Program-made: the position numbers and the translations under genes
Notes under the pieces: model-generated
Database searches by the model: none
Told to the model about the DNA's origin: nothing
Seen by the model: the letters and a program-made list of their open reading frames with translations, nothing else
Shown: piece by piece, positions 1,004 through 63,786 of the stretch
Numbering within the stretch: the stretch's first letter is position 1
Layout of the letters: every line of letters starts with the position of its first letter
DNA from: Allolobophora icterica
Lineage: Eukaryota; Annelida; Clitellata; Crassiclitellata; Lumbricidae
Reading direction: 5' to 3'
Assembly (NCBI GenBank): GCA_963556255.1
Contig: OY744605.1
Span: 4,694,881-4,758,880, forward strand
Length of the DNA: 64,000 bases

Positions 1004-1040
1004 ACACCCCTTTAAAACGTCTACAACATTGCTATATAAA
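1004..1040 (+). promoter_or_regulatory. snRNA-type promoter (PSE + TATA)
   Basis: PSE-like ACACCCCTTTAAAA starts at 1004 and TATA CTATATAAA lies at 1032. Spacing matches the other promoters. A module A hairpin ends about 20 bp upstream (945-977) and may be the 3' end of a preceding unit. No hairpin follows within 150 bp. The same promoter recurs at 54877. Confidence 0.6.
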
Positions 1041-1880
1041 CTTCAATTGCAGTGAAATTTGTGCTGCGAAGAATTTGTCCAGGTTTTCTTTGACTTGACA
1101 GGAACTGAGTAATCCATTATCATGGTTCTTCATTAGAACAAGTCTTTTATTAATACTTACTTTCGTTTTTCACTTGGTCGGTGTATATTTCCCTCTCCAT
1201 AGTTTGTCTTTGTGAATGTCCCTGTAAGTGTTTGCCTCTGTGTCGGTCCGTATACTTGTCTGTTTGCATATATGTAGTTACTTCTGGGTATGTCTGTCTG
1301 TTTATCTTGCTTTGTATCTGGTTATCGAATCCACTGAATTCTGTAGCACTGACGTCTAATCAAGTATACATATATAGCAAATTATTCTCTGCCCTAAATC
1401 ATTCAAATAATATTGGTCATAATCCAGAGATGATTTGAGATTTAAGCATTACAAATACCTCTTGTAATTCCAAAATAATCTGTGGAGTTGCAGCATTTAT
1501 CATGAGGATGATTTATTTTTCGTAATGTACACCAAAATGCGATTAGCAATTGGTTTCATTAAAGGATGCACTTTCTTACCTATTTACTTAGTAAATTGTG
1601 GGTATAGGTCTAATGATTGCTTTGTTAGCTCTTCAATTACCCAGTATGACTATGACTAGGGAAACATATAAACTGTACTTTATTCATTTATACATTATTA
1701 AAGATTTTCTTTATTGTATCTTGCAATAAATTGGGTCTGCATTTAGAGAAGGATTTCTTCAGAGAGGTAGGCACACTTAAAGAATCAGAAAATACAGAAA
1801 AATGTTTAGGGCCCTGATTTTCATTTCTACTCTCCAGCAAACGCCTCTTTTATAGCTGTCATTTCAGCAGCATTGATACT

Positions 1881-2171
1881 CAGAGGCGCCCGCAGGCGGA
1901 CGCACTGGACGCACGTGCGTCCACCCACCAGATCAAATCCACACAAGTATAAGGCAGAACATGGATATTTTTTATGAACGACAATAGGGCATGTTAAAGA
2001 TTTGGATGTTATCTAAATTGAATTGTGTCTAATGAGTCAATCTGAGTCATTTTCAGTGTATGACTACCAGCGGCGGACAGATAACGGGTGGGATGGGAGG
2101 GGATGTGAGGAGTGTGCGTCCAATTTTTTTGGGGTGTGCGTCCAATTTTTTAAAGCCTGCGGGCGCCTCTG
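1881..2171. mobile_element. hAT-type MITE (291 bp)
   Basis: The ends are perfect 17-bp inverted repeats, CAGAGGCGCCCGCAGGC and its complement. An 8-bp target duplication TTGATACT flanks it at 1873-1880 and 2172-2179. The paralogous site near 55755 has one uninterrupted copy of the target, so the insertion came after the block duplicated. CAG-start ends and an 8-bp duplication are typical of hAT. No transposase is encoded. Confidence 0.92.
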
Positions 2172-2475
2172 TTGATACTGGAATTAGCACAAAGTAACAT
2201 TTCATCTAGGCCTACAGGATGTATGCCTGGAATTGAATATAGATCATCCATTACTACACTGTAACAGAGAAAATATCTTCAATATATTAAAAGATAAGTG
2301 TAAATTATTCAAGTTAGAATTTAACATTGGTACTTTACTTGGTGTGGGCTGCATGCAAAGCATGCTGGTCATAACATGTCGTTAAACTCTGCATTCATCC
2401 AGTACTTAGCTTTGTCTCCACATTATGACGGCAAGGTACGGTGGACGTCAAAAGCCCTGGCAGTCATACTGTTTT

Positions 2476-2510
2476 GACACCTTTATAGTGGATTCGACCG
2501 ACGCTATATG
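2476..2510 (+). promoter_or_regulatory. snRNA-type promoter
   Basis: GACACCTTTATAG at 2476 and CTATATG at 2504, 28 bp apart. About 30 bp past the TATA comes a truncated module B 5' part (TGATAGTGCCACTTCC, near 2540). The paralog is at 56353. Confidence 0.55.
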
Positions 2511-2746
2511 TTCGTGAACCCCATTTTCAACATGCAAATAAATCCGTACTGTGATAGTGCCACTTCCTCACCTGCTTCGTTTCCAATACTCAATCTGTCG
2601 ACTCTCGTTTGAAGTCGATGCCATTAAATTCCTCTTAGATCTGCCTCAGAATAACTGAACGTGATCGTGTGTTGTTGATACTGGCTTGCGATCCCGCGTG
2701 GCACTGTCCTACGGAGATGTGTAGACAGTTGAAAATGTAGTAGTAG

Positions 2747-2840
2747 TTTCAGTTTAACGACGCTGTGTCACAACAAAGATGATTCGCGTCGCTCTCCTCC
2801 TTTATCCAGGCTTGGGACTGGCACTATCAGAGTACGAAAA
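2747..2840 (-). ncRNA. Module B hairpin unit (candidate RNA or retroposon tail)
   Basis: Read on the minus strand, the unit begins with a TAGTGCCAGTCCCAAGCC-like stretch, then GGATAAAGGAGGAG, then stem arm GACGCG, a loop with ATCATCTTTG, stem arm AGCGTC and GTTAAAC. Five of six arm positions pair. It is one of about 25 module B copies in the window. No clear same-strand promoter precedes it within 300 bp. Confidence 0.4.
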
Positions 2841-3061
2841 GTGTTTGTTGAAAATGTGGACGTGTGCTGACATTAGTAGGCTTATCAGCGCCAATATAAC
2901 AACATAAACACTTGTGTTCTTACAACATTATCTGTGGCCAATGCTAGACTTTCTGCTGATTAGAAATACACTGACTTCATTTCTAATCTGTCAATAGCTT
3001 AGTCTGAAAATACAGTCAGCAGGCGTGGAACTAGAACAGAAAAACCGTTGGAAGTGATGTA

Positions 3062-3380
3062 TTACATTCTGGTTCCAGAACATAAAACAAATGAAGAAGT
3101 GTTGGGAAGGATTCGAGAAGAAAGGTCCTTCATACGCACATTAAGAATGAGGCAGAAGAAATGGATTGGACACACACCGAGAGGGTATACTCTCTCATAA
3201 GAAATGTCATCGAGGGAAGAATGGATGGGAAGAAGACAAGGGGAAGACAAAGACAGATGATGCTGGATTGGATGATGAAGGAAGGATATAGATTATAGAA
3301 AACTCAAAGAAGAGGCTCAAAATCGAGAAAAGTGGCGACGTCAGACGTTCGAACCTGCCTGAAGGCAGAGAACCAGAAGA
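3062..3380 (+). mobile_element. RTE-like LINE, 3' end of the reverse-transcriptase ORF (broken)
   Basis: The plus strand translates in pieces to the C-terminal tail typical of invertebrate endonuclease-reverse transcriptase LINEs. It includes NEEVLGRIREERSF, then RQKKWIGH, and after a stop and frame change LKEEAQNREKWRRQ. Stops and at least one frameshift show it is dead. No catalytic RT motif remains. The family call rests on the GH-R-GR-R and W-R tail signature. Confidence 0.7.
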
Positions 3381-3434
3381 AGAGAAGAGCGTCTTACTGT
3401 TAAACTAGTAACGATCCACACATTTCAAGTGATA

Positions 3435-3735
3435 TTTTTCAGTCTTTCATAGCTTGATCACGTTTTAGATGATTTCTATTCTGATCTCAGTCTGTTTTCC
3501 TTTACTTATCTTCATTGCCTTCGTCTTTTTGATGTTTATTTTCATACCGTATTCAACTGATATGGTGTTTAGTCGGTCCATCATTATCTGCTTCCCGCCA
3601 TCATCGCCTGGTAATCTGCGAACCTCAGCGCTCTAATCAGTCTGCCTCCAACCTTGACCCCTCCTCCATGTCTTCCAGTGCTTCTCTAATAAGCTCTGCT
3701 ATATAAATATTGAACATGAGCGAGGTATAGGACAA
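3435..3735 (-). mobile_element. LINE reverse-transcriptase fragment (palm region)
   Basis: The minus strand reads GVKVGGRLISALRFADYQAM and continues with MDRLNTISVEYGMKINIKKT. This is the RT palm block with the FADD motif mutated to FADY. It lies head to head with the LINE tail at 3062-3380 and probably comes from a related element. It is non-functional. Confidence 0.7.
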
Positions 3736-4147: not shown

Positions 4148-4601
4148 TTTATATAGTACCTACCATACTCCATAACATTCCCGTTGCAGGACTTCCCTTA
4201 ACGCCGATACTTTCCTAAATGCATCACTTCAGCCAGGTAGACTGGCTGAGCTGTTTTGTGCAAAAGTATCTGGATGATACACGCCAAAGCCACATTAAGT
4301 TTGTGTTATATAGGTAGTTTCTGTATAACGACGACGTGTCTTAGCAGAAATTATTTGCATTGCCCTCCCTTCTCGAGGCTTGATACTGGTACCACCCGAA
4401 AACACTGGCCATAATAGCCGCCAAAACGATTATTAAATAGAGCATAACTGGAGACTACACACGGATAACGAATACATAGCGTCTAACCGGAGTAATTTAT
4501 TATTTATTGTTAAGGACATCTTGTGGCTACAAGAGCCGTTAATGTTGATCTTCAATGCGTCGAAACGGGAGCAATTCGTCAAATACTGAAAAGTTTTAAA
4601 T

Positions 4602-4637
4602 CTATATAGTACATTAGGAAAGTCTTTTAAAGGTGTC
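4602..4637 (-). promoter_or_regulatory. snRNA-type promoter
   Basis: On the minus strand GACACCTTTAAAAG is followed 28 bp later by CTATATAG. It diverges from the promoter at 5221. No hairpin module is seen in the 300 bp downstream. Confidence 0.6.
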
Positions 4638-5220: not shown

Positions 5221-5255
5221 GACACCTTTAAAAACCAGTCAAAAAACTATATATT
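5221..5255 (+). promoter_or_regulatory. snRNA-type promoter
   Basis: GACACCTTTAAAAACC at 5221 and CTATATAT at 5248. The flanks are unrelated to most other promoters, so the shared PSE and TATA look conserved and not merely copied. Confidence 0.6.
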
Positions 5256-6082: not shown

Positions 6083-6120
6083 TTTAACGTCGTCTTATGG
6101 CATCAAAGGCCGTTGACGAC
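6083..6120 (-). ncRNA. Module A hairpin, downstream of promoter 6152-6188
   Basis: Minus-strand GTCGTC and GACGAC arms pair perfectly around AACGGCC...GCCATAA, followed by GTTAAAT and TTTGGATTAATAATAA. It lies about 35 bp past the TATA of the promoter at 6152-6188, so a transcript would start at or just before the stem. The trailing TAA repeats would also fit a retroposon tail. Confidence 0.45.
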
Positions 6121-6151: not shown

Positions 6152-6188
6152 TACTTATAGCGTCCGAAAGACACCATTTAAAAGTGTC
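6152..6188 (-). promoter_or_regulatory. snRNA-type promoter (palindromic PSE)
   Basis: The PSE is the near-palindrome GACACTTTTAAATGGTGTC and TATA is CTATAAGT. The same arrangement occurs at 33418, 48426, 57510 and 59828. Confidence 0.6.
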
Positions 6189-7449: not shown

Positions 7450-7925
7450 TTGTCACCTTGTGCTGTCAACTCCTGGAGCTCTAGCGACCGCCATGACACA
7501 CATTCTCCATTGCTTCCTATTCGAAGTCAGGTCCCTTAGTGCTTCCAGATTCATGCCAGTTACATCGTGAATCTCATCCATCCATTTCTTCCTTGGTCGA
7601 CCCCGTCTTTTTTCCCCCTCACCACAAACCAACATCAATTCCTTTTCTAGCCCATCAGATCGCATAACATGACCAAAGAATCCAAGCTTCAATCTTGTCG
7701 CTTTTTGTTTTAATGACTCTTCATTCTCGACACCAATCTCCACTCGTATTGATTCGTTCGTCCTTTTCTCTGTCCATGATATTCTCAACATCTTTCTCCA
7801 TATCCACATAACACATGCGTTGACCTTTTTCTCCATGTTCTTTGTCATTGTCCAAGACTCACACCCATACAGAACCGTTGGAAAGACTAGGGTAACCCCA
7901 CAGCTCTTCTTAAATACCTTTAAAA
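7450..7925 (-). mobile_element. RTE-like LINE ORF2 C-terminus, 5'-truncated
   Basis: A 182-codon open frame (8001-7453) covers the C-terminal part of an endonuclease-reverse transcriptase. Visible signatures are PTVLYGCESWTMTK, MLRISWTEKRTNE, LGFFGHVMRSDG and KRRGRPRKKWMDE. The catalytic RT region is absent, which is normal for a 5'-truncated LINE copy. The frame's first part (before about 7925) is flanking promoter DNA. It sits beside duplication block 2, whose paralog near 36910 lacks it. Confidence 0.85.
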
Positions 7926-7942
7926 AAACAATGAATATTTTA

Positions 7943-8061
7943 GACACCTCAGTTTCACTTCCTGTTCTCCTGTAAACGGGCCTTACCGAAACGCGAGGCA
8001 ATTAAATCTTGTACGTCGTGCTGTCTATTAATGGGAAAGTAACTCATTGAAATGAGGTGTC
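7943..8061. promoter_or_regulatory. Face-to-face PSE pair with weak TATA boxes
   Basis: GACACCTCAGTTTC on the plus strand at 7943 faces GACACCTCATTTCA on the minus strand at 8061. The TATA positions hold only TGTAAAC and CATTAATA. The paralog at 36924-37045 has an intact plus-strand TATA (CTATAAAAG), so this copy may have decayed. Confidence 0.4.
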
Positions 8062-8394
8062 TAAATAATACAAAACGTCGCAATCGTAAATTTCTACAGC
8101 GCCACTTGAAAGCTAAGTGAAGGGCACTAGATCATTCACGAGCGCTGCATCGAGTCAGAGAGGTTGTCCAAAGGATAGTCAAAAGGAGGTCCGAGTCGGG
8201 TTGCCAGGAAATCAGAGGAGGTAGAGTAGCTGTCCAGAGGATCAACGAAAAACATATATAAATATGAACTGAAATACAAGAAACTTTAAAGACATCGACG
8301 TCTTTTGCTGCCATAGGATATCGATTAATTCTGGGACCAATCAAATACCGAACTAACCATAGTAACTAATAGTAGGAGACGGTTGACGTCTGTA

Positions 8395-9240: not shown

Positions 9241-9280
9241 GTTTATATATAATTTATGATGAAACCATGTTAAAGGTGTC
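9241..9280 (-). promoter_or_regulatory. snRNA-type promoter
   Basis: Minus-strand GACACCTTTAACATGG, then ATTATATATAAAC about 28 bp on. Close relatives are at 25844, 35646, 38325 and 52944. A module A hairpin (9300-9345) ends about 20 bp upstream. Confidence 0.6.
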
Positions 9281-9636: not shown

Positions 9637-9673
9637 AACACCTTTAATTCAGTTTTCAGAGATGCTATATATT
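9637..9673 (+). promoter_or_regulatory. snRNA-type promoter
   Basis: AACACCTTTAATTC at 9637 and CTATATATT at 9665. It diverges from 9241-9280. A module A hairpin lies about 160 bp downstream (9835-9873). Paralog at 38719. Confidence 0.6.
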
Positions 9674-9694: not shown

Positions 9695-9873
9695 GACTGT
9701 CAAAGGCACTTAGTAAATTCCCGGATAGAATATCATAACATACCATACCTGTGCTGATATGACAAAATCAATATTCACCAAATCGTAGACTGTATTGCCA
9801 TAGGAACGGTGAGAACTGCTCACAATAATTTGTCGACGTCAACGACCTTTGTTGTCATAAAGTGTCGTTTAAC
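9695..9873 (+). ncRNA. Candidate small RNA ending in module A hairpin
   Basis: The start is predicted about 25-30 bp past the TATA of 9637-9673. The 3' part has arms GACGTC (9835) and AGTGTC (9861), which pair at five of six positions with wobbles, around AACGACCTTTGTTGTCATAA, then GTTTAAC. The total would be about 175 nt. The paralog is about 38775-38955. Neither 3' end nor function can be read from sequence. Confidence 0.4.
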
Positions 9874-10770: not shown

Positions 10771-10808
10771 CAGCACCTTTTCAATGCTATCACCGAAGGC
10801 TATATAAA
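10771..10808 (+). promoter_or_regulatory. snRNA-type promoter
   Basis: AGCACCTTTTCAATG and CTATATAAAT, 28 bp apart. It diverges from 10484-10520, about 250 bp away. Paralog at 40623. Confidence 0.6.
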
Positions 10809-10948: not shown

Positions 10949-10987
10949 CACGTCAGCGGCTCTGGTAGCCAAAAGATGTTGTTAAAC
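10949..10987 (+). ncRNA. Module A hairpin, about 140 bp past promoter 10771-10808
   Basis: CACGTCAGCGGCTCTGGTAG, then CCAAAAGATGTTGTTAAAC. Arms pair partly (ACGTC with GATGT). A transcript from the upstream promoter to GTTAAAC would be about 155 nt. The paralog near 40797-40838 is more decayed. Confidence 0.35.
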
Positions 10988-11759: not shown

Positions 11760-11820
11760 GGATGGATGGATCCCTAATTAAACGACATCTCATGGCAACA
11801 ATGATCGTTGACATCTTGTA
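11760..11820 (-). ncRNA. Module A hairpin
   Basis: Minus-strand GATGTC and GATGTC arms pair through two G-U wobbles around AACGATCATTGTTGCCATGA, then GTTTAAT. It is followed by GGGATCCATCCATCC, a short tail-like repeat. Confidence 0.35.
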
Positions 11821-12130: not shown

Positions 12131-12321
12131 ATAATTCCCAATTTATTAAACGGATTAATGCAGCGGCTTTGTATATATAGAGTGGTAGACATGGCTTTAA
12201 GGGTGTGCAAGGAAACACATTGTGATGTAAATGAGGTGTCTAAAATATTACTAATACTCAAGGGAAGACAAATACAAATATGAAATGAAATACGATCAAC
12301 TTTAAAGACGCCTATTTGGGT

Positions 12322-13354: not shown

Positions 13355-13390
13355 CACACCCTTAAAACGTTTCAAAACGTCGCTATATAA
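13355..13390 (+). promoter_or_regulatory. snRNA-type promoter
   Basis: CACACCCTTAAAACG and CTATATAA, 28 bp apart. Related to 1004-1040. About 50 bp further lies GACGTTATCAGCTG and GTCGTTAAA (13438-13465), a possible decayed module A. Confidence 0.55.
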
Positions 13391-16046: not shown

Positions 16047-16083
16047 GACACCTTTTCTACGTTGTCAGCAAAACTATATAAAA
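16047..16083 (+). promoter_or_regulatory. snRNA-type promoter
   Basis: GACACCTTTTCTACG and CTATATAAAA, 27 bp apart. A module A hairpin lies about 145 bp downstream. Confidence 0.6.
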
Positions 16084-16104: not shown

Positions 16105-16267
16105 TCTTGGATGCGTCACAACCAACTCCATGAACCCAGAACCATCTTAAATATACGCATGGAGACCAATGACAATATGAAACGAATCAAGAAACTGAAC
16201 TTATATATAAATGCAATTAATTTTTAAAGACGTCAACGTCATAGCGACCATAATGGTGTCGTTAAAC
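16105..16267 (+). ncRNA. Candidate small RNA ending in module A hairpin
   Basis: The predicted start lies about 25 bp past the TATA of 16047-16083. Arms GACGTC (16229) and GGTGTC (16255) pair with two wobbles around AACGTCATAGCGACCATAAT, then GTTAAAC at 16261. Length would be about 160 nt. The tail continues with AGTTGGAATAATAAAA. Confidence 0.4.
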
Positions 16268-19051: not shown

Positions 19052-19089
19052 ATTATATAAGGACTGATTGACAACGCTTTAAAGGTGTC
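19052..19089 (-). promoter_or_regulatory. snRNA-type promoter
   Basis: Minus-strand GACACCTTTAAAGCG, then CTTATATAATG. Past the TATA comes GCAGCTGC, shared with relatives at 45467, 51025 and 62202. Confidence 0.6.
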
Positions 19090-20440: not shown

Positions 20441-20479
20441 GTTTAACGACATCTTATGGTACCAAAGGGCGTTGACGTA
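20441..20479 (-). ncRNA. Module A hairpin, downstream of weak promoter at 20625
   Basis: Minus-strand ACGTC and GATGT arms around AACGCCCTTTGGTACCATAA, then GTTAAAC. The PSE at 20625 (GACACCTTTAACATAG) is good but the TATA has decayed to GTAAATTAC. Confidence 0.4.
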
Positions 20480-21026
20480 AATAGAAATTATTTGTGAACA
20501 TTTCTCAGCATTCATTTGGCGTAATGCAGTTAGCTACCTATGAAAATTTATAGGACTCAATTAACTAAAATGTCAAGCGATTTGTCATTATGTGTAATTT
20601 ACACTAAAACTATGTTAAAGGTGTCGATGGAGTGTTGCAATAAATAACGGCAGCTTATGCAGAAATAAATAAATCAACATTCACGAGATCGTAAAACTCC
20701 TCCACTACTCTATCTGTGGTAGTGCCAGTCCCAAGCTTTGAGTACCTTACATGCAAATTAGCAGTGTGGAAGTTACAGTTTCCGGTTTAATTTAAATACA
20801 ACATCCTAACCGAGAAAGTATTTTTTTATTAAGCTATCGCAGCTGTGGGTAAAATCCGGTCATGTGTTCTTCGTCGATGGATATATACAGTTTTCTTTCT
20901 TGCATGTAAGAACCCCTGCAAAGCGTGCCCTGGAGAGTCCAAGACATCGGAAAACAGCCAGGTATCAGCTTGTTCACATAATTGTTCGTATGTCGGATTG
21001 TTGCAGGGGAGGTATCTCATTTGAAT

Positions 21027-25843: not shown

Positions 25844-25883
25844 GTTTATATATAATTTATGATGAAGCCATGTTAAAGGTGTC
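25844..25883 (-). promoter_or_regulatory. snRNA-type promoter
   Basis: Minus-strand GACACCTTTAACATGG, then ATTATATATAAAC. A decayed module A lies about 85 bp downstream (GATGTCAAAGGCTTTTC, near 25770). Confidence 0.6.
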
Positions 25884-26341: not shown

Positions 26342-26378
26342 AACACCTTTAAAACGATTCTTAGAGGTGCTATATATT
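26342..26378 (+). promoter_or_regulatory. snRNA-type promoter
   Basis: AACACCTTTAAAACG and CTATATATT, 28 bp apart; a relative of 9637. A minus-strand SINE fragment (26400-26580) begins right after it. Confidence 0.6.
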
Positions 26379-28269: not shown

Positions 28270-28302
28270 GACACCTTTGTTAGGGATTCTGATTCTATAA
28301 TA
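28270..28302 (+). promoter_or_regulatory. snRNA-type promoter
   Basis: GACACCTTTGTTAGG and CTATAATA; tandem copy of 27841. Confidence 0.6.
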
Positions 28303-28469
28303 ATTGGAATAAATCCGCTAAAGATACATCTGTTGCATGCCCGGGTATTAAGAGTACTTAACACTAGCAAAAAGTTCAATTAACTGTGTGAAATTTAACA
28401 ACTGATTCTACAATCTTATAGTACATTCTACTTATGCATGTGACAGATGCAATGTACGGGAAAGCCTTC

Positions 28470-28508: not shown

Positions 28509-28530
28509 ACACCGTTTAATTCCAGACTAT

Positions 28531-28567
28531 ACGTCAACGGCCTTAATGCCATAAGATGTCATTAAAC
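28531..28567 (+). ncRNA. Module A hairpin at predicted transcript start
   Basis: ACGTC and GATGT arms pair with one wobble around AACGGCCTTAATGCCATAA, then ATTAAAC. In the paralog (43079-43120) the second arm is GACGT, restoring a G-C pair. It is followed by TCTGGATTCATCAATCC and ATCC repeats. Confidence 0.5.
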
Positions 28568-29370: not shown

Positions 29371-29408
29371 ATTATTATATTTTGAAATTAAACCGTTTTA
29401 AAGGTGTC
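29371..29408 (-). promoter_or_regulatory. snRNA-type promoter
   Basis: Minus-strand GACACCTTTAAAACGG, then ATATAATAATAAT. A module A hairpin (29500-29535, minus) lies about 90 bp upstream. Confidence 0.5.
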
Positions 29409-31108: not shown

Positions 31109-31570
31109 AGAACTACGAAAAATTATGTAATCTTTAGATGGTAGATCACAGAACCCATTATTATGAACGGCGGTTTATTGACAACATAGATTGTGTTTAT
31201 TTATGTAGGCCTAACCAAGTGCTGCGCGAACGAGTAATTCATGTTAATGATGCGCAGGGTGTAGAGTGCCTATTTTGTGAATATAGGTAAAATATATTTG
31301 AGTAATTTTCTAGAAATTGTTGAAAACACGATAAAATTCCATGAGAAAAAAATAGATTGTGAGCCAGAAATCAAAGAAACACAGACAAGAACGAAAAAAC
31401 CAGATCTTGATGGAAAACATAGAAATGGCAACCCTGCATGCAAGTTATGTATGTGTAACGTCACTGAAATATATCGATCATATCGCAGATGTTAATAGTT
31501 TGCATGTACGCAAATATAGCATTAATCCCCACGAAATCTAAGAAGTAACGAAGATTTTGTTTTGTGATTA

Positions 31571-31604
31571 TTATATTGTCGAAAAAACCCATATTAAAGG
31601 TGTA
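31571..31604 (-). promoter_or_regulatory. snRNA-type promoter
   Basis: Minus-strand ATACACCTTTAATATGG, then CAATATAATAA. A minus-strand module A hairpin (31660-31700) lies upstream. Confidence 0.5.
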
Positions 31605-33346: not shown

Positions 33347-33385
33347 GTTTAACGTCGTCCTATGACATCAAAGGCCGTCGACGAC
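33347..33385 (-). ncRNA. Module A hairpin, downstream of promoter 33418-33452
   Basis: Minus-strand GTCGTC and GACGAC arms pair perfectly around GACGGCCTTTGATGTCATAG, then GTTAAAC and TGTGGAATAATAATAA. It begins about 33 bp past the TATA. Confidence 0.45.
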
Positions 33386-33417
33386 AATTCAGATCATACA
33401 CAGTACAGTAAAATGAA

Positions 33418-33452
33418 GTTATAACATCTGTAAGACACCATTTAAAGGTGTT
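33418..33452 (-). promoter_or_regulatory. snRNA-type promoter (palindromic PSE)
   Basis: Minus-strand AACACCTTTAAATGGTGTC and GTTATAAC, 28 bp apart. Confidence 0.58.
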
Positions 33453-34249: not shown

Positions 34250-34285
34250 TATATATGGAATAGTTGACACAGTTTTAAAGGTGTC
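34250..34285 (-). promoter_or_regulatory. snRNA-type promoter
   Basis: Minus-strand GACACCTTTAAAACTG, then CCATATATAGG. The TTAA at 34313-34316 just upstream is the empty version of the piggyBac site at 45530. Confidence 0.6.
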
Positions 34286-35501: not shown

Positions 35502-35540
35502 GTTTAATGACATCTTATGGCCACAAAGGACGATGATGTC
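35502..35540 (-). ncRNA. Module A hairpin in unit driven from 35683
   Basis: Minus-strand GACATC and GATGTC arms pair perfectly around ATCGTCCTTTGTGGCCATAA, then ATTAAAC. It lies about 105 bp past the TATA; the predicted RNA would be about 120 nt. Relatives: 52799-52837, 20441-20479. Confidence 0.45.
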
Positions 35541-35645: not shown

Positions 35646-35683
35646 ATATATATAACTTGCAATAAAACTATTATAAAGGTGTC
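35646..35683 (-). promoter_or_regulatory. snRNA-type promoter
   Basis: Minus-strand GACACCTTTATAATAG, then GTTATATATATTG. Confidence 0.6.
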
Positions 35684-36192: not shown

Positions 36193-36227
36193 AACACCTT
36201 TAAAATATTTATCCAGATTCTATATAG
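36193..36227 (+). promoter_or_regulatory. snRNA-type promoter
   Basis: AACACCTTTAAAATAT and CTATATAG, 27 bp apart. A decayed module A (AGTCAACGGCCGTTGTGGCC, 36273) lies about 45 bp past the TATA. Confidence 0.6.
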
Positions 36228-36923
36228 ATGTCACTTGGACCATTCATTAATTTTTATAGCATCGAAAAGAGTTCTAGTCAACGGCCGTTGTGGCCATAAT
36301 ATGCCAAAGTAGTTCCTGTGCACTACAAGTGAAAACAACAGCTCTTCTCAGTCTAAAAACGTTTTAACCTAAGCTAAATGTAGAATAAGACTCCCGTGTC
36401 AAAATTATTATTATATATATCTTAACCTAAACCGAGTTCAATCTTTTAACTGACATCTTACCCTATCAACTGCATCTTACCCTATCACGTGCAAATGTCC
36501 TTTTCTTCAGAGGAAACCGGCGATCATAAAATCATTAGATTATCAGTTGGACCTAAGCCATTAAGCGTCCAATCGACTATAGGTGGCCGACCGGTTTCCT
36601 TTAAATTCATGAAACGATCTGGGAATTGGGATTTAGAATTGAAAGGGCAATGTCCACATAACTGACAGTGGTCATGTTTCTTTGTCTTTCAAATGTTAAT
36701 AAAGGTGCAATATGAATGCACAGTTGCGGATTCTTATTTAAGGAGGTAGAATTGCTAGTTAAATTGTGAGTTGCTTGATAGGAGCTACAGGAACAAAAAG
36801 AATGGACAAAATCATATATCATGCTGTTAATTCTCGGATTTGGAAGAGAGGTTCGCTTGAACTACATATAACTGCAGTAATTGCCGGTTATAATTATTAG
36901 CTGAATTATCTGGTAATATTTTA

Positions 36924-38324: not shown

Positions 38325-38362
38325 TTATATATAATTTATGATGAAGCCATGTTAAAGGTGTC
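38325..38362 (-). promoter_or_regulatory. snRNA-type promoter
   Basis: Minus-strand GACACCTTTAACATGG, then ATTATATATAAAC; paralog of 9241-9280. Confidence 0.6.
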
Positions 38363-38718: not shown

Positions 38719-38755
38719 AACACCTTTAATTCAGTTTTCAAAGATGCTATATATT
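38719..38755 (+). promoter_or_regulatory. snRNA-type promoter
   Basis: AACACCTTTAATTC and CTATATATT; paralog of 9637-9673. Confidence 0.6.
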
Positions 38756-38774: not shown

Positions 38775-38955
38775 TCCACTGTCAAAGGCACTTCGTAAAT
38801 TCCCGAATAGTATATCATAACATACCATACCTGTGCTGATATGACAAAATCAAACTTCCCCAGATTGTAGACTGTATTGCCATAGGAACGGTGAGAACTG
38901 CTCACAATAATTTGTCGACGTCAACGACCTTTGTTGTCAAGAAGTGTCGTTTAAC
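38775..38955 (+). ncRNA. Candidate small RNA ending in module A hairpin
   Basis: Paralog of 9695-9873. Arms GACGTC (38917) and AGTGTC (38943), then GTTTAAC. The loop change TCATAA to TCAAGA is the main difference. Confidence 0.4.
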
Positions 38956-40622: not shown

Positions 40623-40660
40623 GACACCTTTTCAACGTAATCGCCGAAGGCTATATAAAT
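40623..40660 (+). promoter_or_regulatory. snRNA-type promoter
   Basis: GACACCTTTTCAACG and CTATATAAAT; paralog of 10771-10808. A decayed module A follows at about 40797-40838. Confidence 0.6.
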
Positions 40661-41354
40661 CTCAACCGCGTATTTTGGTTTTTTTTTCCTGTTTTCATAG
40701 CAGTTACGGAAACCACCGAACAAAAATTTGTAAGGACATAATAGTAGACCCCTAGGGTAGAAGCGCCACTTTCAAACCTGGAAATTTGAGGGGGCCAGGT
40801 CACCGGCTCTGGTAGTCAAAAGATTTTGATAAACATAGAAAATCTCTATTTGCCAATCTAATCATCATCACATGGCAGAGAGTACCGTTCAACCGAGCGA
40901 TAGGAGTGCCTTTGCAACAGATTAGCGGCATTTTATGGCATCAAAGGCCGCTGACGTCGATTGGAAAAAATGTTTAAAGTTTTTTTTCCAGCTAGTTCTT
41001 TAATAGCGAAAAATTTCAGTAAATAATATTCTTTTATTGACAAGCTCACTGATAAACCGCAGTAAGTAACATTGCAACAATGAAACACGACTGTACAATT
41101 GTCAAGATCTTATCGAACACACGTCTTGGCAGCCTGTTAGGCGCCCGCTCATTTTACTGCCAACCCTAAGCGAGTTGAAGGCTGAGAAGGGGATTTCGGG
41201 CATTGAACCGTGTCTTTTCAAAATCTAATGTTGTTTGGGGGGATCCATATAGTAGTGGTAACATCACTTGAGTGAAGAGCAGTAGGTTGCGGGATTGCTT
41301 CCCGCAACCCTCTTAAAGGTCCACTCAGCATATCATTCGCGAGATGGCGCGTTG

Positions 41355-42815: not shown

Positions 42816-42848
42816 GACACCTTTGTTAGGAATGCTGACTCTATAATA
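42816..42848 (+). promoter_or_regulatory. snRNA-type promoter
   Basis: GACACCTTTGTTAGG and CTATAATA; paralog of 27841 and 28270. Confidence 0.6.
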
Positions 42849-43018
42849 AATGGAATAACTCCGGTACTGATACATAAGTTGTTGTATGCCGGGGTATAAA
42901 GAGTATTTAAAAGTCGCAAAAAGTTCAATTAAGTGTGTGAATTTTAACAACTGATTGTACAATGTTAAAGTACATTCTACTAATGCGTGTGGCATATGCA
43001 GTGTACGAGAAACCCTTC

Positions 43019-43078: not shown

Positions 43079-43120
43079 TACGTCAACGGCCTTAATTAAT
43101 GCCATAAGACGTCGTTAAAC
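43079..43120 (+). ncRNA. Module A hairpin at predicted transcript start
   Basis: ACGTC and GACGT arms pair perfectly around AACGGCCTTAATTAATGCC, ATAA, then CGTTAAAC. A 4-bp ATTA duplication enlarges the loop relative to 28531. A second, shorter module A-like unit lies at 43158-43190. Confidence 0.5.
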
Positions 43121-45162: not shown

Positions 45163-45199
45163 GACACCTTTACAACGATTTCAACCGAAATTATATAAG
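45163..45199 (+). promoter_or_regulatory. snRNA-type promoter
   Basis: GACACCTTTACAACG and ATTATATAAG, 28 bp apart. A decayed module A (AGTCAACAGCCTTTGTTGCC, 45301) ending GTTAAAC lies about 100 bp past the TATA. Confidence 0.58.
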
Positions 45200-45466
45200 C
45201 GTCAATTTCGTTTAACCGTCACCTTTGACGCAGTTTGGTGCATTATGGCACACGGAGGGTGAGAACTACACGTAGTATGAATAATAATTATTTCTGTCAA
45301 AGTCAACAGCCTTTGTTGCCATAAGATGTTAAACTCTGGATAGAAGACTATCCTTGTCCATACGAACCACGTGTCTTTCTGACGCTGTTCTTTTTTCATG
45401 TACAAAATTCAGTATCAAAGTCGCATTTCAAGGTAACAGTGATTAGACCGCATAACGCAGCTGCTG

Positions 45467-45502
45467 TATTTATAGTTCCGTTAATATCGCTTTAAAGGTG
45501 TC
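45467..45502 (-). promoter_or_regulatory. snRNA-type promoter
   Basis: Minus-strand GACACCTTTAAAGCG, then CTATAAATAC and GCAGCTGC. The piggyBac element at 45530 begins about 28 bp upstream of the PSE and separates it from its normal upstream flank, which resumes at 47310. Confidence 0.6.
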
Positions 45503-48366: not shown

Positions 48367-48405
48367 GTCTAACGTCGTCTTATGACATCAATGGCCGTTG
48401 ACGAC
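48367..48405 (-). ncRNA. Module A hairpin at predicted transcript start
   Basis: Minus-strand GTCGTC and GACGAC arms pair perfectly around AACGGCCATTGATGTCATAA, then GTTAGAC and TTTGGATTAATAATAA. The first arm starts about 28 nt after the first T of the TATA, where initiation is expected. This is the clearest promoter-plus-hairpin unit. Confidence 0.5.
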
Positions 48406-48425: not shown

Positions 48426-48461
48426 ATTTATAGCATCCGAATAACACCATTTAAAGGTGTC
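48426..48461 (-). promoter_or_regulatory. snRNA-type promoter (palindromic PSE)
   Basis: Minus-strand GACACCTTTAAATGGTGT and CTATAAAT, 28 bp apart. Confidence 0.62.
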
Positions 48462-51024: not shown

Positions 51025-51061
51025 CTATATAGAGATTAGCTGACACAGCTTTAAAGGTGTC
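51025..51061 (-). promoter_or_regulatory. snRNA-type promoter
   Basis: Minus-strand GACACCTTTAAAGCTG, then CTATATAG and GCAGCTGC. Confidence 0.6.
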
Positions 51062-52798: not shown

Positions 52799-52837
52799 GT
52801 TTAACGACATCTTATGGCTCCAAAGGCCGTTAACGTC
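52799..52837 (-). ncRNA. Module A hairpin in unit driven from 52981
   Basis: Minus-strand GACGTT and GATGTC arms (two wobbles) around AACGGCCTTTGGAGCCATAA, then GTTAAAC and TCTGCATCCATCC. It lies about 105 bp past the TATA, giving a predicted RNA near 120 nt. Confidence 0.45.
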
Positions 52838-52943: not shown

Positions 52944-52981
52944 TAATATATTATTTGCATTGAAACCATCTTAAAGGTGTC
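52944..52981 (-). promoter_or_regulatory. snRNA-type promoter
   Basis: Minus-strand GACACCTTTAAGATGG, then AATAATATATTAA. Confidence 0.6.
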
Positions 52982-54876: not shown

Positions 54877-54914
54877 ACACCCCTTTAAAACGTCTACAAA
54901 CGTTGCTATATAAA
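54877..54914 (+). promoter_or_regulatory. snRNA-type promoter
   Basis: ACACCCCTTTAAAACG and CTATATAAA; paralog of 1004. Weaker PSE copies lie at 54459 and 54712. Confidence 0.6.
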
Positions 54915-56352: not shown

Positions 56353-56387
56353 GACACCTTTATAGTGGATTCAGCCCACGCTATATG
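56353..56387 (+). promoter_or_regulatory. snRNA-type promoter
   Basis: GACACCTTTATAGTGG and CTATATG; paralog of 2476. A shortened module B (GATAGTGCCACTTCCAAACC, then CACAGTGTGGTTAAAAAAC) follows about 50 bp past the TATA, with most of the middle deleted. Confidence 0.58.
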
Positions 56388-56704
56388 TTCGTGTACCTCA
56401 TTTTGAAACATGCCATTAAATCCGCCACTGCTCGTACTCTGATAGTGCCACTTCCAAACCTGACACAGTGTGGTTAAAAAACAAGTATAGCCAACACTAT
56501 GACATAAGAAGGGTTAGAAATTCTCAGACGAATCGTAATTAAGGCGGATGGTAAAGTCGACGTCAGGCAAAAGATGTTGGTTCTTGTAAAATACCTTTTA
56601 CCACAGGCCTAATTGCACATGCAATACATTTTCTGGGATCGGCATCAAATGCGAATTATTTGTTACTCATGTTGATTAGGTAAGTTGCACCGGAAGTTAA
56701 TAAG

Positions 56705-56800
56705 TCGTGAGGTAGTGCCAGTCCCAAGCCTGGATAGATGAGGAGGAGGACGCTAATCATCTTTGCTACGATACATCGTCGTTAAACAGAAACTACACAG
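56705..56800 (+). ncRNA. Module B hairpin unit
   Basis: GGTAGTGCCAGTCCCAAGCC, GGATAGATGAGGAGG, GACGCT arm, ATCATCTTTGCTACGATACA, GTCGTTAAACAGAAACTAC. The second arm reads TCGTC, so the stem is partly decayed. Confidence 0.4.
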
Positions 56801-57509: not shown

Positions 57510-57545
57510 GACACCTTTAAATGGTGTCTTTTGGACACTATAAGT
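57510..57545 (+). promoter_or_regulatory. snRNA-type promoter (palindromic PSE)
   Basis: GACACCTTTAAATGGTGTC and CTATAAG, 28 bp apart. Confidence 0.6.
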
Positions 57546-58956: not shown

Positions 58957-58994
58957 TTTATATAATACTTGTGCATATCGTTTTAAAGGTGTGG
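58957..58994 (-). promoter_or_regulatory. snRNA-type promoter
   Basis: Minus-strand CACACCTTTAAAACG, then ATTATATAAACG. A short module A-like remnant (AACGACCAATGTC, 58885) lies about 65 bp past the TATA. Confidence 0.55.
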
Positions 58995-59745: not shown

Positions 59746-59759
59746 TTTTTTTAAATCCG

Positions 59760-59790
59760 AAGTCTTTTGACAACAATGGTCGTTGACGAC
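59760..59790 (-). ncRNA. Module A hairpin, decayed
   Basis: Minus-strand GTCGTCAACGACCATTGTTG and TCAAAAGACTTC. The second arm has lost pairing and GTTAAAC is gone. It lies downstream of promoter 59828-59863 after an A-run expansion. Confidence 0.3.
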
Positions 59791-59827: not shown

Positions 59828-59863
59828 ACTTATAGTGTCCATATAACACCATTTAAAGGTGTC
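59828..59863 (-). promoter_or_regulatory. snRNA-type promoter (palindromic PSE)
   Basis: Minus-strand GACACCTTTAAATGGTGT and CTATAAGT. Confidence 0.6.
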
Positions 59864-60426
59864 AAACATAAGCTTACAATGTCAATAATGTTACATCATT
59901 TAAAGCAATATATCTAATGTTATTTATAATACACATAGCTATAAAATGTTTTGATGCAATTAAACAGTACTTCGCAACTATTGTCACGACTCAAGAAACA
60001 TTTAAACAACTTCAGATATAAATGCACAGTACATATAATTATAATTATGGCATTATGTTCATATTTTGTTTTTGAAATTTTAATTGATTATTTCTTATTC
60101 CTCAGTTCAATGAGATCTTATGGAAATATCTACCACTACAATCATATCATGTATGAAATAGTACCAATTTCACATACATCATACACATTAAATGAAACAT
60201 ATGGTTATGCCAAGTACCTTTTTTAAGAAAATGTTCAGGTATCTAACACATTCAACTATAAATTTTATTAATAAACAAAGCATATAATTATGAACATGAT
60301 AATTACAATTGTTTCAAGTTTGATTTCAATGCATTCAAGATTGCATTATAATAATGTAATAATTAATACAATAAAATAAAATGCAGAAGGAAAAGACTAT
60401 ACCTACAATTAAATGAACTGTTGAAT

Positions 60427-60462
60427 GCTTATAGTGACTGGAGAGCAGAATTAAAAGGTGTC
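60427..60462 (-). promoter_or_regulatory. snRNA-type promoter
   Basis: Minus-strand GACACCTTTTAATTCTG, then CTATAAGC. No hairpin in the next 200 bp. Confidence 0.55.
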
Positions 60463-61095: not shown

Positions 61096-61779
61096 AGTCG
61101 CTAGCACTTCTTACCCATGGCTGCTTCAGGGCTAGCTTAAGGAACACGCGCGTCTTCTACTGGAATTTATAGCGTCATTGCAAGACTTTAAAATGGTGTG
61201 AACGGATCTGCTGTTCTCTTATACTTCGTCCATGGCTGCCTGGGACGCTGACGTCGACCTTACATCACCTTACAAACGTTGCAGTCGAAGACACTTGAGA
61301 GTAAGCAGGATGGAAAGTTTAAATGGTACCATTCAACTCAAATGGTTATGCTATTTGTCATACATCGTACATTACCAAAAACAATAGCGATATAAAGAAA
61401 TATTTACCTCAGATAATTATACAAGATTAAGGAATTTCCTTTTCCGAAAATCATGTGCTTAATTAATCAGTCTTCGCATAATTGTTGAATTCTTAGTGCG
61501 ACAGTGTTTGAGATAGTTTTACAATCGATTAATGGTGACCAAAATATAGGATCATATCAACTTTAAAATAACATTATAGCGTATTACGGTTTATTAATTT
61601 TATAAAATATGTCTATTAAAACAATATGTGATATTACCGCTATTTTATATCACATTTAAATTTGGTTTTCATATCCACTACATGTACAACGCCGTTGTGA
61701 TGACGGACACAGGGACAATCGATGGACAATGGAGCTTGCTTACATATTTGCTTGCGTGCTTACTTCCTTGCTTACAACA

Positions 61780-62174: not shown

Positions 62175-62201
62175 GTGATCGAATCGCTTATAGCAGCTGC
62201 T

Positions 62202-62238
62202 CTATATATACACTTCTTGGCAACGCTTTAAAGGTGTC
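62202..62238 (-). promoter_or_regulatory. snRNA-type promoter
   Basis: Minus-strand GACACCTTTAAAGCG, then TATATATAGA and GCAGCTGC. Confidence 0.6.
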
Positions 62239-62409
62239 CAATTAGACGTATTGCTTCAACACGGTTTATGCCCTTTAACAACATCTTATGACTATCAAGA
62301 CGGATGACTTTGTCCACACCTTTTAACACACAAAATCTAACCTGCTTCGTCTCTATTTCTGGCCATTATGTAGATATTCTGTGTAACAAATCTGTCAGAC
62401 CAGAGATAG

Positions 62410-62800
62410 TTATAATCTAGAAATTTGGATTTCCTTGTGCCTATAGGGTTCTAAATATTTAATACATGTATTTACAAGTGGACAAATAGTGTTGAAGTCA
62501 GATAATTAGATAATTACACAATTAGATGAGCTTTGGCGATTGATATTTTCCTAGAATTACTTGCTTTGGTCTATTTGTTAAGAATGGCGCACCAATTAAA
62601 AGTAAACGGTACCACGAATTAATATAAAACAATCGCAAACATTATCGCACGAAACATCATTCGATGACTTCAGCCATTAAAACCATTAAAATATATATTT
62701 AAATTTCGATTTCAAATGCAGTGAAATATACGTGCCATTTTAAGGACGCAGAGAGCGACACTTAATGGACGATAGAAATTTCAATAAAGTTTTTTAAAAA
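62410..62800. other. AT-rich non-coding stretch
   Basis: No promoter, hairpin module or coding signal recognised. Confidence 0.4.
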
Positions 62801-62812
62801 TATTCAGGCTTT

Positions 62813-62943
62813 CCCTGGCGTAAAGTTATCCAAAATATTGGGGTGGGAGGGGATTTGGTTATTCATTCTACAGTTATTACATTGGGGTACAGTTCTTCTC
62901 AATAAATTGGGGCTGCCCCCCTCCCCAAGAGTCTACGACTATG
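62813..62943. mobile_element. hAT-type MITE (131 bp)
   Basis: Ends CCCTGGCGTAAAGTT and the complement of CATAGTCGTAGACTC; 8-bp duplication CAGGCTTT / CAGACTTT with one mismatch. Same family as 44544-44835. Confidence 0.75.
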
Positions 62944-63299
62944 CAGACTTTAGCGAGATCTTCTGGGTTCCAGGGCCGTTGACACTTACAGCATCTTAAT
63001 TAGTTTAATTACTGAATTCGCCAGCTGAACAATAGCGATTTGATAGCTTTAGTAGTTTATGGCTTAATTTAGTAGTTTCTATTGCTAGCGATATTTTGCG
63101 GATCACCTTAGTATTATCTGCCACACATGACATCAAATGTCGTTCACCACAACAGGAAAACTTAATGCACAGCTCTTTAAAAAAATCCTCTTTTTATAAC
63201 ATGTATCAAAAATGGGATTTCATATCCACTATGCCTACAGCGGCGCAATGATGACGCACAACGTGACAACGATGCGCAATAGAACATGCTTACTTACTC

Positions 63300-63500
63300 A
63301 CTTAATCGTTCGTCCTTCCCAAGCAGGTCTCAACATCGGACAGCGCATCTTCTCCATTCTTTCACCTTGTTCCACAACATCTAGAGAACTTAATGTCGTC
63401 CCTGATGGTCTCCGACCAGTTCAACATCCCGTGGTCTTCCCCTTCTCCTTTTCCTCCAGATCATCACTTGGTCGGCTCTTCTATCCCTGTCCATAAACTT
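63300..63500 (-). mobile_element. LINE ORF2 C-terminal scrap
   Basis: Minus-strand relative of 61780-62174 with the complement of TCCAGATCATCACTTGG and GTCGGCTCTTCTATCCC. Confidence 0.5.
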
Positions 63501-63514
63501 CGCCACTGCTCGTG

Positions 63515-63608
63515 CTCTGACAGTGCCAGTCCCAAGCCTAGATAAAGGAGGAGGGCGACGCTAATGATCTTTGTTATCGCACAGTGTCGTTGAACTGAAA
63601 CTACTACT
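63515..63608 (+). ncRNA. Module B hairpin unit
   Basis: GACAGTGCCAGTCCCAAGCC, TAGATAAAGGAGGAGGG, arms GACGCT and AGTGTC (one wobble) around AATGATCTTTGTTATCGCAC, then GTTGAAC and TGAAACTACTAC. One of the best preserved copies. Confidence 0.42.
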
Positions 63609-63752
63609 AGGCCTACTCCTTATCCATACGAACCACATATCCCATCCATTTTAATCTTCTCTTTCTGATAGTTTACTCTATTTCATCTTCTCCCGTCCGC
63701 TGTCTAAGGACTTTAGTGAAACTCAATCAATAAATCACTTAATGGAGCTTCT

Positions 63753-63786
63753 GTATATATAATATTAGTTGCCATTTAAAGGTGTC
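63753..63786 (-). promoter_or_regulatory. snRNA-type promoter
   Basis: Minus-strand GACACCTTTAAATGGC, then ATTATATATACAG. Confidence 0.6.

What the first reader, a model, noticed from the sequence alone, without database searches (positions are those of the whole stretch)
1004..63786. A dense array of about 50-65 snRNA-type (PSE + TATA) promoters on both strands
Seen: a core near RACACCTTTWAAA, followed 25-29 bp later (PSE start to TATA start; a few up to 33) by CTATAWAW, occurs about once per kb, in both orientations, over the whole 64 kb. Flanks of different subfamilies (for example 4602, 5221, 10771, 27036, 33418) are unrelated, while core and spacing persist. Known: metazoan snRNA genes and type 3 Pol III genes use a PSE with a CACC core and a TATA box at fixed spacing. 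Inference: this is a cluster of many undescribed small RNA genes. I cannot tell Pol II from Pol III; no consistent T-run terminator follows.
Basis: partly seen in the sequence, partly recalled or inferred. Interest (0 to 1): 0.88.

Follow-up and report, generated by a model that had tools for sequence, protein, structure and literature searches.

The report
Thousands of U2-type promoters in earthworm
In an earthworm genome, mostly towards chromosome ends, a promoter of the kind that drives the splicing RNA U2 seems to have been copied in its thousands, the copies facing different stretches of DNA, which looks like a huge set of small-RNA genes similar to the piRNA genes of nematode worms.

Summary
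In 264 kb (window plus 200 kb fetched) a PSE+TATA model scores 173 sites against 1 in reversed DNA; 42 lie in the window, on both strands. The own genome (1.12 Gb; COX1 says earthworm) holds 2,611 exact core+TATA matches against 2 in control, mostly towards chromosome ends (80 of the 100 listed; 27 of 27 strict-consensus sites). The species' U1 genes share the core at the same distance from +1, without TATA. U2 genes have a TATA at 27-28, as in the array. U6 spacing is 33. So the geometry is U2-type (Pol II); no T-run terminators follow. Between paralogues the first ~30 nt after the predicted start are least conserved (partly by how pairs were selected). A third of promoters are followed, in sense, by a hairpin whose pairs co-vary. 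Best reading: very many short non-coding Pol II genes, most likely piRNA-precursor-like as at nematode 21U loci. Transcription and function are not shown. SINE-like parts (tRNA-like heads, twister-like cores, dispersed hairpins) make a retroposon reading the main rival.

The parts
1005..1039 (+). PSE+TATA promoter (spacing 27)
2476..2511 (+). PSE+TATA promoter
4602..4637 (-). PSE+TATA promoter
5221..5254 (+). PSE+TATA promoter (spacing 26)
6153..6188 (-). PSE+TATA promoter, inverted-repeat core
7913..7945 (+). weak promoter-like site (score 10.8)
9245..9280 (-). PSE+TATA promoter, family A
9637..9672 (+). PSE+TATA promoter
10772..10807 (+). PSE+TATA promoter, family C
12173..12207 (-). PSE+TATA promoter (spacing 27)
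13355..13390 (+). PSE+TATA promoter, family D
16047..16081 (+). PSE+TATA promoter, family C
19055..19089 (-). PSE+TATA promoter, family B
20590..20625 (-). PSE+TATA promoter, family A
25848..25883 (-). PSE+TATA promoter, family A
26342..26377 (+). PSE+TATA promoter, exact core and TATA
28270..28305 (+). weak promoter-like site (score 10.7)
29372..29408 (-). PSE+TATA-like promoter, family A
31569..31604 (-). PSE+TATA-like promoter
32120..32155 (-). PSE+TATA-like promoter, exact core
33417..33452 (-). promoter-like site, inverted-repeat core (score 13.5)
34251..34285 (-). PSE+TATA promoter, family B
35648..35683 (-). PSE+TATA promoter, family A
36193..36227 (+). PSE+TATA promoter (spacing 27)
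38327..38362 (-). PSE+TATA promoter, family A
38719..38754 (+). PSE+TATA promoter
40623..40658 (+). PSE+TATA promoter, family C
42816..42851 (+). weak promoter-like site (score 10.9)
45163..45198 (+). PSE+TATA promoter, best score in window (45.3)
45468..45502 (-). PSE+TATA promoter, family B
48426..48461 (-). PSE+TATA promoter, inverted-repeat core
51027..51061 (-). PSE+TATA promoter, family B
52946..52981 (-). PSE+TATA promoter, family A
54878..54913 (+). PSE+TATA promoter, family D
56353..56388 (+). PSE+TATA promoter
57510..57545 (+). PSE+TATA promoter, inverted-repeat core
58958..58993 (-). PSE+TATA promoter
59828..59863 (-). PSE+TATA promoter, inverted-repeat core
60427..60462 (-). promoter-like site (score 12.0)
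61165..61200 (-). promoter-like site (score 16.7)
62204..62238 (-). PSE+TATA promoter, family B
63755..63786 (-). PSE+TATA promoter, family B (spacing 24)
4515..4546 (-). E2 hairpin downstream of promoter 4637-
6089..6120 (-). E2 hairpin downstream of promoter 6188-
8291..8322 (+). E2 hairpin downstream of weak site 7913+ (345 nt past its start)
9835..9866 (+). E2 hairpin downstream of promoter 9637+
10949..10980 (+). E2 hairpin downstream of promoter 10772+
11784..11815 (-). E2 hairpin downstream of promoter 12207- (357 nt past its start)
16229..16260 (+). E2 hairpin downstream of promoter 16047+
20448..20479 (-). E2 hairpin downstream of promoter 20625-
28529..28560 (+). E2 hairpin downstream of weak site 28270+
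33354..33385 (-). E2 hairpin downstream of promoter 33452-
35509..35540 (-). E2 hairpin downstream of promoter 35683-
36274..36305 (+). E2-like hairpin (score 15) downstream of promoter 36193+
38917..38948 (+). E2 hairpin downstream of promoter 38719+
40796..40827 (+). E2 hairpin downstream of promoter 40623+
43082..43113 (+). E2 hairpin downstream of weak site 42816+
45299..45330 (+). E2 hairpin downstream of promoter 45163+
48374..48405 (-). E2 hairpin downstream of promoter 48461-
52806..52837 (-). E2 hairpin downstream of promoter 52981-
56749..56780 (+). E2 hairpin downstream of promoter 56353+ (360 nt past its start)
59759..59790 (-). E2 hairpin downstream of promoter 59863-
60112..60143 (-). 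E2 hairpin downstream of promoter-like site 60462-

Best explanation
The window is one part of clusters, lying mostly towards the chromosome ends of an earthworm genome, of snRNA-type promoters with U2 geometry: a SNAPc-type PSE plus a TATA box at the U2 spacing. Each drives its own short non-coding Pol II transcript. Shown by sequence: promoter resemblance to the species' own U1/U2 genes, geometry, number, clustering, absence of Pol III terminators, poor conservation of the first ~30 nt, and a sense hairpin downstream of about a third of them. Inferred: SNAPc and TBP recruit Pol II, which starts about 30 bp past the TATA and makes a short RNA; the product is carried by the first ~30 nt, whose sequence is free to differ between loci; downstream conserved blocks, often the E2 hairpin, help end or process the transcript. 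Most likely function: piRNA precursors, a parallel to the nematode 21U system, in which an snRNA-derived motif drives more than ten thousand separate Pol II loci in megabase clusters. Separate estimates: genuine promoter family 0.85, short non-coding transcripts 0.7, piRNA-like product 0.4.
For: 173 promoters against 1 control in 264 kb. Genome-wide 2,611 exact matches against 2; of the 100 places listed (a capped list, C1 and part of C2) 80 lie within 10 Mb of an end. A strict consensus finds 28; the 27 on large contigs all lie within 10 Mb of an end. U2: core to TATA 27-28 in 6 of 10 read, TATA to +1 31-32 in those; U1: core to +1 58-59 in the 7 of 15 with a clear core; U6: +1 at 64 in 9 of 9, box at 33; array 28. 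TTTT is not enriched at +20..60: 14.5% of 159 against 21.3% of random pieces. First-ATG frames are no longer than random. A pyrimidine-purine step sits at offset 29/30 in 72 of 178 deduplicated promoters (0.40; 0.19-0.32 at offsets 26-36 otherwise), with T at +3 in 58% of those against 34% of the rest. Homology between promoter pairs (900 pairs, not independent) ends 20-80 bp past the core start in 494 and at 100-140 in 192; the predicted start is at 58-59. In 63 pairs homologous on both sides, identity is 0.55-0.60 at 0..+30, against 0.94 over the PSE core and 0.77-0.84 at +60..+190. Ten of the 28 strict-consensus loci, on 9 chromosomes, are 0.27 identical over the first 30 nt. E2 within 400 nt after the start: 36% of 161 in sense, 8% antisense, 9.4% at random. 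Nematode parallel: abstracts of PMC7917550 and PMC11262695, abstract and passages of PMC6436959.
Against: No RNA, CAGE or ChIP data were available. Only 6 of 15 U1 and 2 of 10 U2 genes read have the full ACACCTTT; 8 of 15 U1 have a weak or different PSE. Clustering at ends is not strict: 20 of the 100 listed exact matches are interior, 12 of them at C2 72-80 Mb. The +3 T may be a common initiator. The 63 pairs were chosen for similar flanks, which by itself deepens the dip at 0..+30; against far flanks the difference in 17 disjoint pairs has p 0.04, only 36 of 63 pairs have 0..30 below both far flanks, and three close window pairs show little or none. E2 is sense, whereas TE-silencing piRNAs are classically antisense to targets (recalled). 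E2 hairpins, twister-like cores and tRNA-like heads look like SINE parts. 116 of 173 promoters have no E2 within 450 bp. Earthworms already have ping-pong piRNAs peaking at 29-30 nt (passages of PMC6085071).
Confidence: 0.45

Rival explanations
1. A retroposon (SINE-like) system: the PSE+TATA units are heads of, or source loci for, short elements that end in the E2 hairpin and a microsatellite-like tail and are moved by LINE machinery.
For: E2 with up to 3 mismatches has 3,239 copies on many chromosomes. It is often followed by runs such as CATCC, AAT and ACT (seen). Twister-like cores, 41 in 264 kb against 0 in control, have an E2 anchor 54 nt on in 21 of 41; 12 of 41 have a sense promoter within 400 nt upstream against 3 antisense. 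tRNA-like heads share a 22-nt element with some promoters: 29 of 45 such elements stand 21-23 nt before a promoter core, 8 others have a B box. E2 is sense-biased after promoters. Tandem double promoters about 76 bp apart would let one transcript carry the next promoter.
Against: Promoter copies show no fixed 5' edge and often no shared body, which a transposing unit should have. An external promoter is not copied by retrotransposition (established knowledge). The local LINE family does not end in E2: one of three copies found has an E2 within 1,500 nt.
Confidence: 0.27
2. Decayed snRNA-type promoters amplified by segmental duplication, without present function.
For: Many segments of the window are about 64-94% alike; six of 42 window sites score under 15; the 0..+30 stretch may simply be neutral.
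Against: In 63 pairs the PSE core is 0.94 identical while sequence 80-200 bp upstream is 0.67-0.79. Spacing is 27-28 in 155 of 173. Near-perfect copies lie on 10 large contigs.
Confidence: 0.15
3. Type 3 Pol III genes (U6/7SK-like).
For: PSE plus TATA is the vertebrate type 3 layout (recalled). One U6 gene (L036) has GACACCT, close to the array core.
Against: This species' U6 box is at 33, not 28. TTTT is not enriched downstream.
Confidence: 0.06
4. TATA promoters of a protein-coding or peptide gene family.
For: GTAAG/GTGAG is enriched at +20..60, 13.2% against 4.8%; ATG within 100 nt 89% against 78%.
Against: First-ATG frames have median 10 aa against 13 in random DNA; bodies unrelated after near-identical promoters.
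Confidence: 0.04

Closest known systems
Caenorhabditis elegans type I piRNA (21U-RNA) genes with the Ruby motif
   Same: snRNA-promoter-derived motif; more than ten thousand separately transcribed Pol II loci; megabase clusters (abstracts of PMC11262695 and PMC7917550; abstract and passages of PMC6436959). Possible pyrimidine-purine start with T at +3 (nematode form recalled).
   Different: Annelid; a PSE with a strong TATA at U2 spacing; clusters on many chromosomes; a sense hairpin downstream at a third of loci; small RNA not shown.
U2 snRNA gene promoter of the same species
   Same: PSE-TATA spacing 27-28 and TATA to +1 about 31 (6 of 10 read); CACCT-type core (7 of 10).
   Different: Full ACACCTTT in only 2 of 10 U2 genes; the array has no U2 body and no U1/U2-like 3' box.
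U1 snRNA gene promoter of the same species
   Same: ACACCTT core 58-59 bp before +1 in 7 of 15 read.
   Different: No TATA.
Newt satellite 2
   Same: Repetitive DNA transcribed from an snRNA-type promoter together with a self-cleaving ribozyme motif.
   Different: Here not a tandem satellite; bodies differ; the ribozyme would be a sub-threshold twister, not a hammerhead.
Metazoan SINEs and retrozymes
   Same: tRNA-like heads, 3' hairpin, short tandem tails, ribozyme-like core nearby.
   Different: Promoter lies outside the predicted transcript and is conserved while bodies often are not.

Membership tests
SNAPc/PSE-dependent snRNA-type Pol II promoter (U1/U2) | PSE core used by the species' own snRNA genes | tested here: met
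   ACACCTT at 58-59 bp before +1 in 7 of 15 U1 read (ACACCTTT in 6); CACCT core in 7 of 10 U2 read; 8 of 15 U1 have weaker or other cores.
SNAPc/PSE-dependent snRNA-type Pol II promoter (U1/U2) | TATA at the U2 spacing | tested here: met
   U2: 27-28 in 6 of 10; array 27-28 in 155 of 173; U6 33.
SNAPc/PSE-dependent snRNA-type Pol II promoter (U1/U2) | Bound by SNAPc, transcribed by Pol II | not testable with these tools
   No ChIP or RNA data.
snRNA gene | 3' box downstream | tested here: not met
   A matrix from 11 typed U1/U2 3' flanks is about as frequent in sense (9.2%) as antisense (6.9%) in 131 bodies. These are not shown to be snRNA genes; the promoter type stands.
Type 3 Pol III genes | U6-like PSE-TATA spacing | tested here: not met
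   28 against 33.
Type 3 Pol III genes | T-run terminator soon after the start | tested here: not met
   TTTT not enriched.
21U-type piRNA genes | Very many separate loci with an snRNA-like upstream motif, clustered | tested here: met
21U-type piRNA genes | Pyrimidine-purine start with T at +3 | tested here: inconclusive
   Enriched but an ordinary initiator would look alike.
21U-type piRNA genes | PIWI-bound 5'U small RNA from the first ~30 nt | not testable with these tools
   No small RNA reads.
SINE | Whole unit dispersed with fixed ends and target-site duplications | tested here: inconclusive
   Promoter units: no fixed 5' edge. E2 and twister-like parts repeated or dispersed; duplications not searched.
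Twister ribozyme (RF03160) | Score over Rfam gathering threshold | tested here: not met
   Best 42.1 bits against 67.2; several P1 pairs non-standard in the one alignment viewed.

The most novel reading that the evidence does not exclude
An annelid has independently evolved a nematode-like repertoire of more than ten thousand separately transcribed small-RNA genes. U2-type Pol II promoters were taken over; each transcript starts with a ~30-nt segment that is rewritten from copy to copy (the piRNA or guide), followed by a conserved 3' block or structured hairpin that ends or anchors the RNA.
Probability: 0.33. Interest if true: 0.95.

Novelty: new variant of a known kind. Interest (0 to 1): 0.82.

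Why it matters
In the papers seen here, individually promoted piRNA loci built on snRNA promoters are described only for nematodes. A second, independent case in earthworms, with a TATA-bearing promoter and a different 3' arrangement, would show that snRNA promoters are a recurrent route to large small-RNA repertoires, and would make the origin of such systems testable by comparison. If instead it is a retroposon system, it is one in which snRNA-type Pol II promoters were multiplied to thousands of copies, which is also new to me.

Tried and rejected
Rejected: U6/7SK-type Pol III genes (spacing differs, no T-runs). Known RNA genes in the window: none over Rfam gathering scores, no tRNA. E2 as the tail of the local LINE: three copies found end in AAGGTGAC-type sequence and one has an E2 within 1,500 nt. 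U1/U2-like 3' box downstream: not found. Coding frames: not longer than random. Four ORFs (LINE, two others, piggyBac-like) were scanned against Pfam; only the last hit, DDE_Tnp_1_7. ARAGORN found no tRNA in six loci with tRNA-like pieces. Literature: searches listed no paper on snRNA-type promoter arrays in annelids; the lists were capped and the library lacks most subscription journals. Papers: listings and abstract openings for most; found passages only of PMC7229834, PMC6436959 and PMC6085071; none read whole.

Rows dropped before counts. U1: 30 matches listed, 16 upstreams fetched, 15 read (one lacked the start word). U2: 46 listed, 15 fetched, 10 read. U6: 14 loci, 9 used. Flank-pair analysis: 137 promoters entered (low scores, ends and first members of doubles dropped), 38 gave the 63 pairs, which were selected for at least 0.68 identity on each side. 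Start-site analysis: 208 promoters reduced to 178. E2 covariation: 140 distinct copies of 161. Sampling bias: the fetched 200 kb and the 40 short loci (of 100 places listed) were chosen for exact promoter matches, the last ten from 28 strict matches. The total (2,611 x 173/20, order 20,000) rests on that sample.

Full report
What was checked. The exact core occurs 7 times. With one mismatch in each block at spacing 25-29 there are 21 sites, against none in Markov sequences and none at a shifted spacing. A matrix built from seeds, scanned with free spacing over the window plus 200 kb fetched from the same genome, gives 173 sites against 1 in reversed DNA; 42 are in the window, 18 on the + and 24 on the - strand. 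Spacing from core start to TATA is 28 in 125 and 27 in 30 of the 173.

Where it is. The window is G000:C4:4,694,881-4,758,880 of a 1.118-Gb assembly. Its mitochondrial COX1 is 96% identical to COX1 of Eisenia and Amynthas, so the animal is an earthworm or close kin. The exact core+TATA pattern has 2,611 matches genome-wide, against 2 for the pattern read backwards. The list of places is capped at 100: 69 on C1, of which 64 lie within 10 Mb of an end, and 31 on C2, of which 16 do; 12 of the interior ones form a group at C2 72-80 Mb. A strict consensus has 28 matches. The 23 on seven chromosomes of known length lie 0.9-9.4 Mb from an end, while 27% of those chromosomes lies within 10 Mb. The four on C13, C15 and C19 are also within 10 Mb (lengths); one is on a small contig. 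In the 264-kb sample the exact pattern occurs 20 times, 76 per Mb against 2.3 per Mb in the genome. Scaling 2,611 by 173/20 gives an order of 20,000 promoters; the sample was chosen from dense places, so this is rough.

What kind of promoter. The species' own genes were fetched in part. U1: core ACACCTT with idx0 (the base before ACACC) 58-59 bp before +1 and no TATA, clear in 7 of 15 read; the other 8 have weak or other sequences there. U2: TATA 27-28 bp from idx0 and 31-32 bp before +1 in 6 of 10 read; the core is CACCT-type in 7 of 10, the full ACACCTTT in 2. U6: a CACC-type core, TATA box at 33, +1 at 64, in 9 of 9 read; one (L036) has GACACCT. The array has 28 and, by the same rule, +1 at 58-59. 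Its geometry is U2-like and its core closest to U1. U4, U5 and 7SK were not examined. Downstream T-runs are not enriched. A pyrimidine-purine step at offset 29/30 from the TATA start (0.40 of 178) with T at +3 after it (0.58 against 0.34) marks a plausible start, one base before the U2 rule.

What is transcribed. Homology between promoter copies reaches beyond -100 upstream in 424 of 900 pairs. Downstream it stops at +20..80 from the core in 494 and at +100..140 in 192, the latter fitting tandem double promoters; pairs are not independent, since 110 of 169 promoters form one group. Nineteen double promoters about 76 bp apart align closely over both promoters and lose similarity after the second. 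In 63 pairs homologous on both sides (38 promoters), the identity profile has its trough at 0..+30 (0.55-0.60), between 0.94 over the PSE core and 0.77-0.84 at +60..+190; upstream at -200..-80 it is 0.67-0.79. Those pairs were selected for at least 0.68 identity at -120..-5 and +70..+200, which deepens the trough. In 17 disjoint pairs the means are 0.72 far upstream, 0.83 promoter, 0.63 at 0..30, 0.86 at +60..130 and 0.81 far downstream; p is 0.0005 against near flanks and 0.04 against far flanks, and 36 of 63 pairs have 0..30 below both far flanks. So the first 30 nt are at least unconstrained and perhaps faster than neutral: two close C1 pairs (0.77 and 0.67 against about 0.9) suggest the latter, three close window pairs (0.90, 0.97, 0.87) do not. 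Ten of the 28 strict-consensus loci, on nine chromosomes, share the promoter nearly to the start (read by eye) and are 0.27 identical over the next 30 nt. In three C1 subfamilies of 5, 2 and 8 members the stretch from the start to a conserved 3' block is 0.58-0.63 identical (shuffled 0.49-0.54), promoters 0.76-0.87 and 3' blocks 0.77-0.88.

The E2 hairpin. A second element, consensus GACGTCAACGGCCTTTGTTGCCATAAGATGTCGTTAAAC, has 151 hits against 1 in control at score 10, and 167 against 7 at score 6. It folds as a 6-bp stem, an internal loop, a 3-bp stem and a 7-nt loop. Over 140 distinct copies, 133 cells show changes on both sides of a pair, against 71 +/- 6 in shuffles (maximum 88); paired cells are 0.75 against 0.68, and 0.22-0.42 with partners slid by 1-2. 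Relatedness is not removed by the shuffle. E2 follows 36% of 161 promoters within 400 nt in sense and 8% in antisense; random places have 9.4%; 24% also have a sense E2 within 400 nt upstream. In 48 further loci 15 have E2 downstream. Among 8-mers that are sense-biased in 131 deduplicated bodies, most of the top ones are E2 pieces and several are PSE pieces of following promoters. E2 is also dispersed: 3,239 copies with up to 3 mismatches.

Mechanism. The anatomy fits a Pol II unit: SNAPc on the PSE, TBP on the TATA, a start about 30 bp on, a short RNA with a locus-specific 5' part, then conserved sequence that may help stop or process it. I judge a piRNA-like product most likely, by analogy with nematode 21U loci, whose motif derives from snRNA promoters and whose loci form megabase clusters in Caenorhabditis (abstract and passages of PMC6436959; abstracts of PMC7917550 and PMC11262695). 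Earthworms make 5'U piRNAs peaking at 29-30 nt (passages of PMC6085071), near the width of the variable stretch; this is suggestive only. The main rival is a retroposon system: 41 twister-like cores, 21 of them exactly 54 nt before an E2 anchor; tRNA-like heads that share a 22-nt element with some promoters, 29 of 45 such elements lying 21-23 nt before a promoter core; and E2 tails with short tandem repeats. That rival does not explain conserved external promoters with unrelated bodies.

Novelty. snRNA-type promoters and snRNA-derived piRNA promoters are both known kinds. A family of this size in an annelid did not turn up in the searches listed under Tried and rejected.

Noticed in passing
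window 63491-63560 +, 53683-53740 +, 2791-2854 -, 35755-35820 +, 52127-52202 + and others: Sub-threshold twister-P1 ribozyme matches (best 42.1 bits, cut-off 67.2), several directly 5' of an E2 hairpin; 41 such cores in 264 kb against 0 in control, two of them in tandem 111 bp apart (L027).
   Followed up: partly
264-kb sample, e.g. C1_3.35 + 97846 (in L018), C2_96.72 - 2674 (in L027); L131, L139: tRNA-like SINE heads (A and B boxes) share a 22-nt element with the upstream end of some PSE promoters, alike up to CCTT and then diverging.
   Followed up: partly
window 6170/6188, 33434/33452, 48443/48461, 57510/57528, 59845/59863: Promoters whose core is an inverted repeat, so that a PSE-like core is read on both strands.
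   Followed up: no
C1 3.35-3.47 Mb (L009-L020): Nineteen tandem double promoters about 76 bp apart; by the spacing rule the first one's start lies about 17 bp before the second one's PSE.
   Followed up: partly
G000:C2 72-80 Mb: An interior group of 12 exact promoter matches, away from chromosome ends (listing).
   Followed up: no
window 45960-46436 -: piggyBac-type transposase fragment (DDE_Tnp_1_7).
   Followed up: no
window 7453-8001 -: LINE reverse transcriptase C-terminal fragment (no Pfam hit; named from its motifs) followed by AAGGTGAC-type sequence, with relatives in L017 and L028.
   Followed up: partly
window 16673-17436: Tandem repeat, 187 bp unit, 4.1 copies.
   Followed up: no
G000:C257 and G000:C8:61145195-61147845: C257 carries a COX1 frame without stops by the standard code (probably bacterial contamination); C8 holds two inverted COX1-like copies with mitochondrial-code stops.
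   Followed up: no
L003-L006, L092: One promoter subfamily shares an AAACTATAA-like element about 45-60 nt past the start in several members instead of E2 (read by eye).
   Followed up: no
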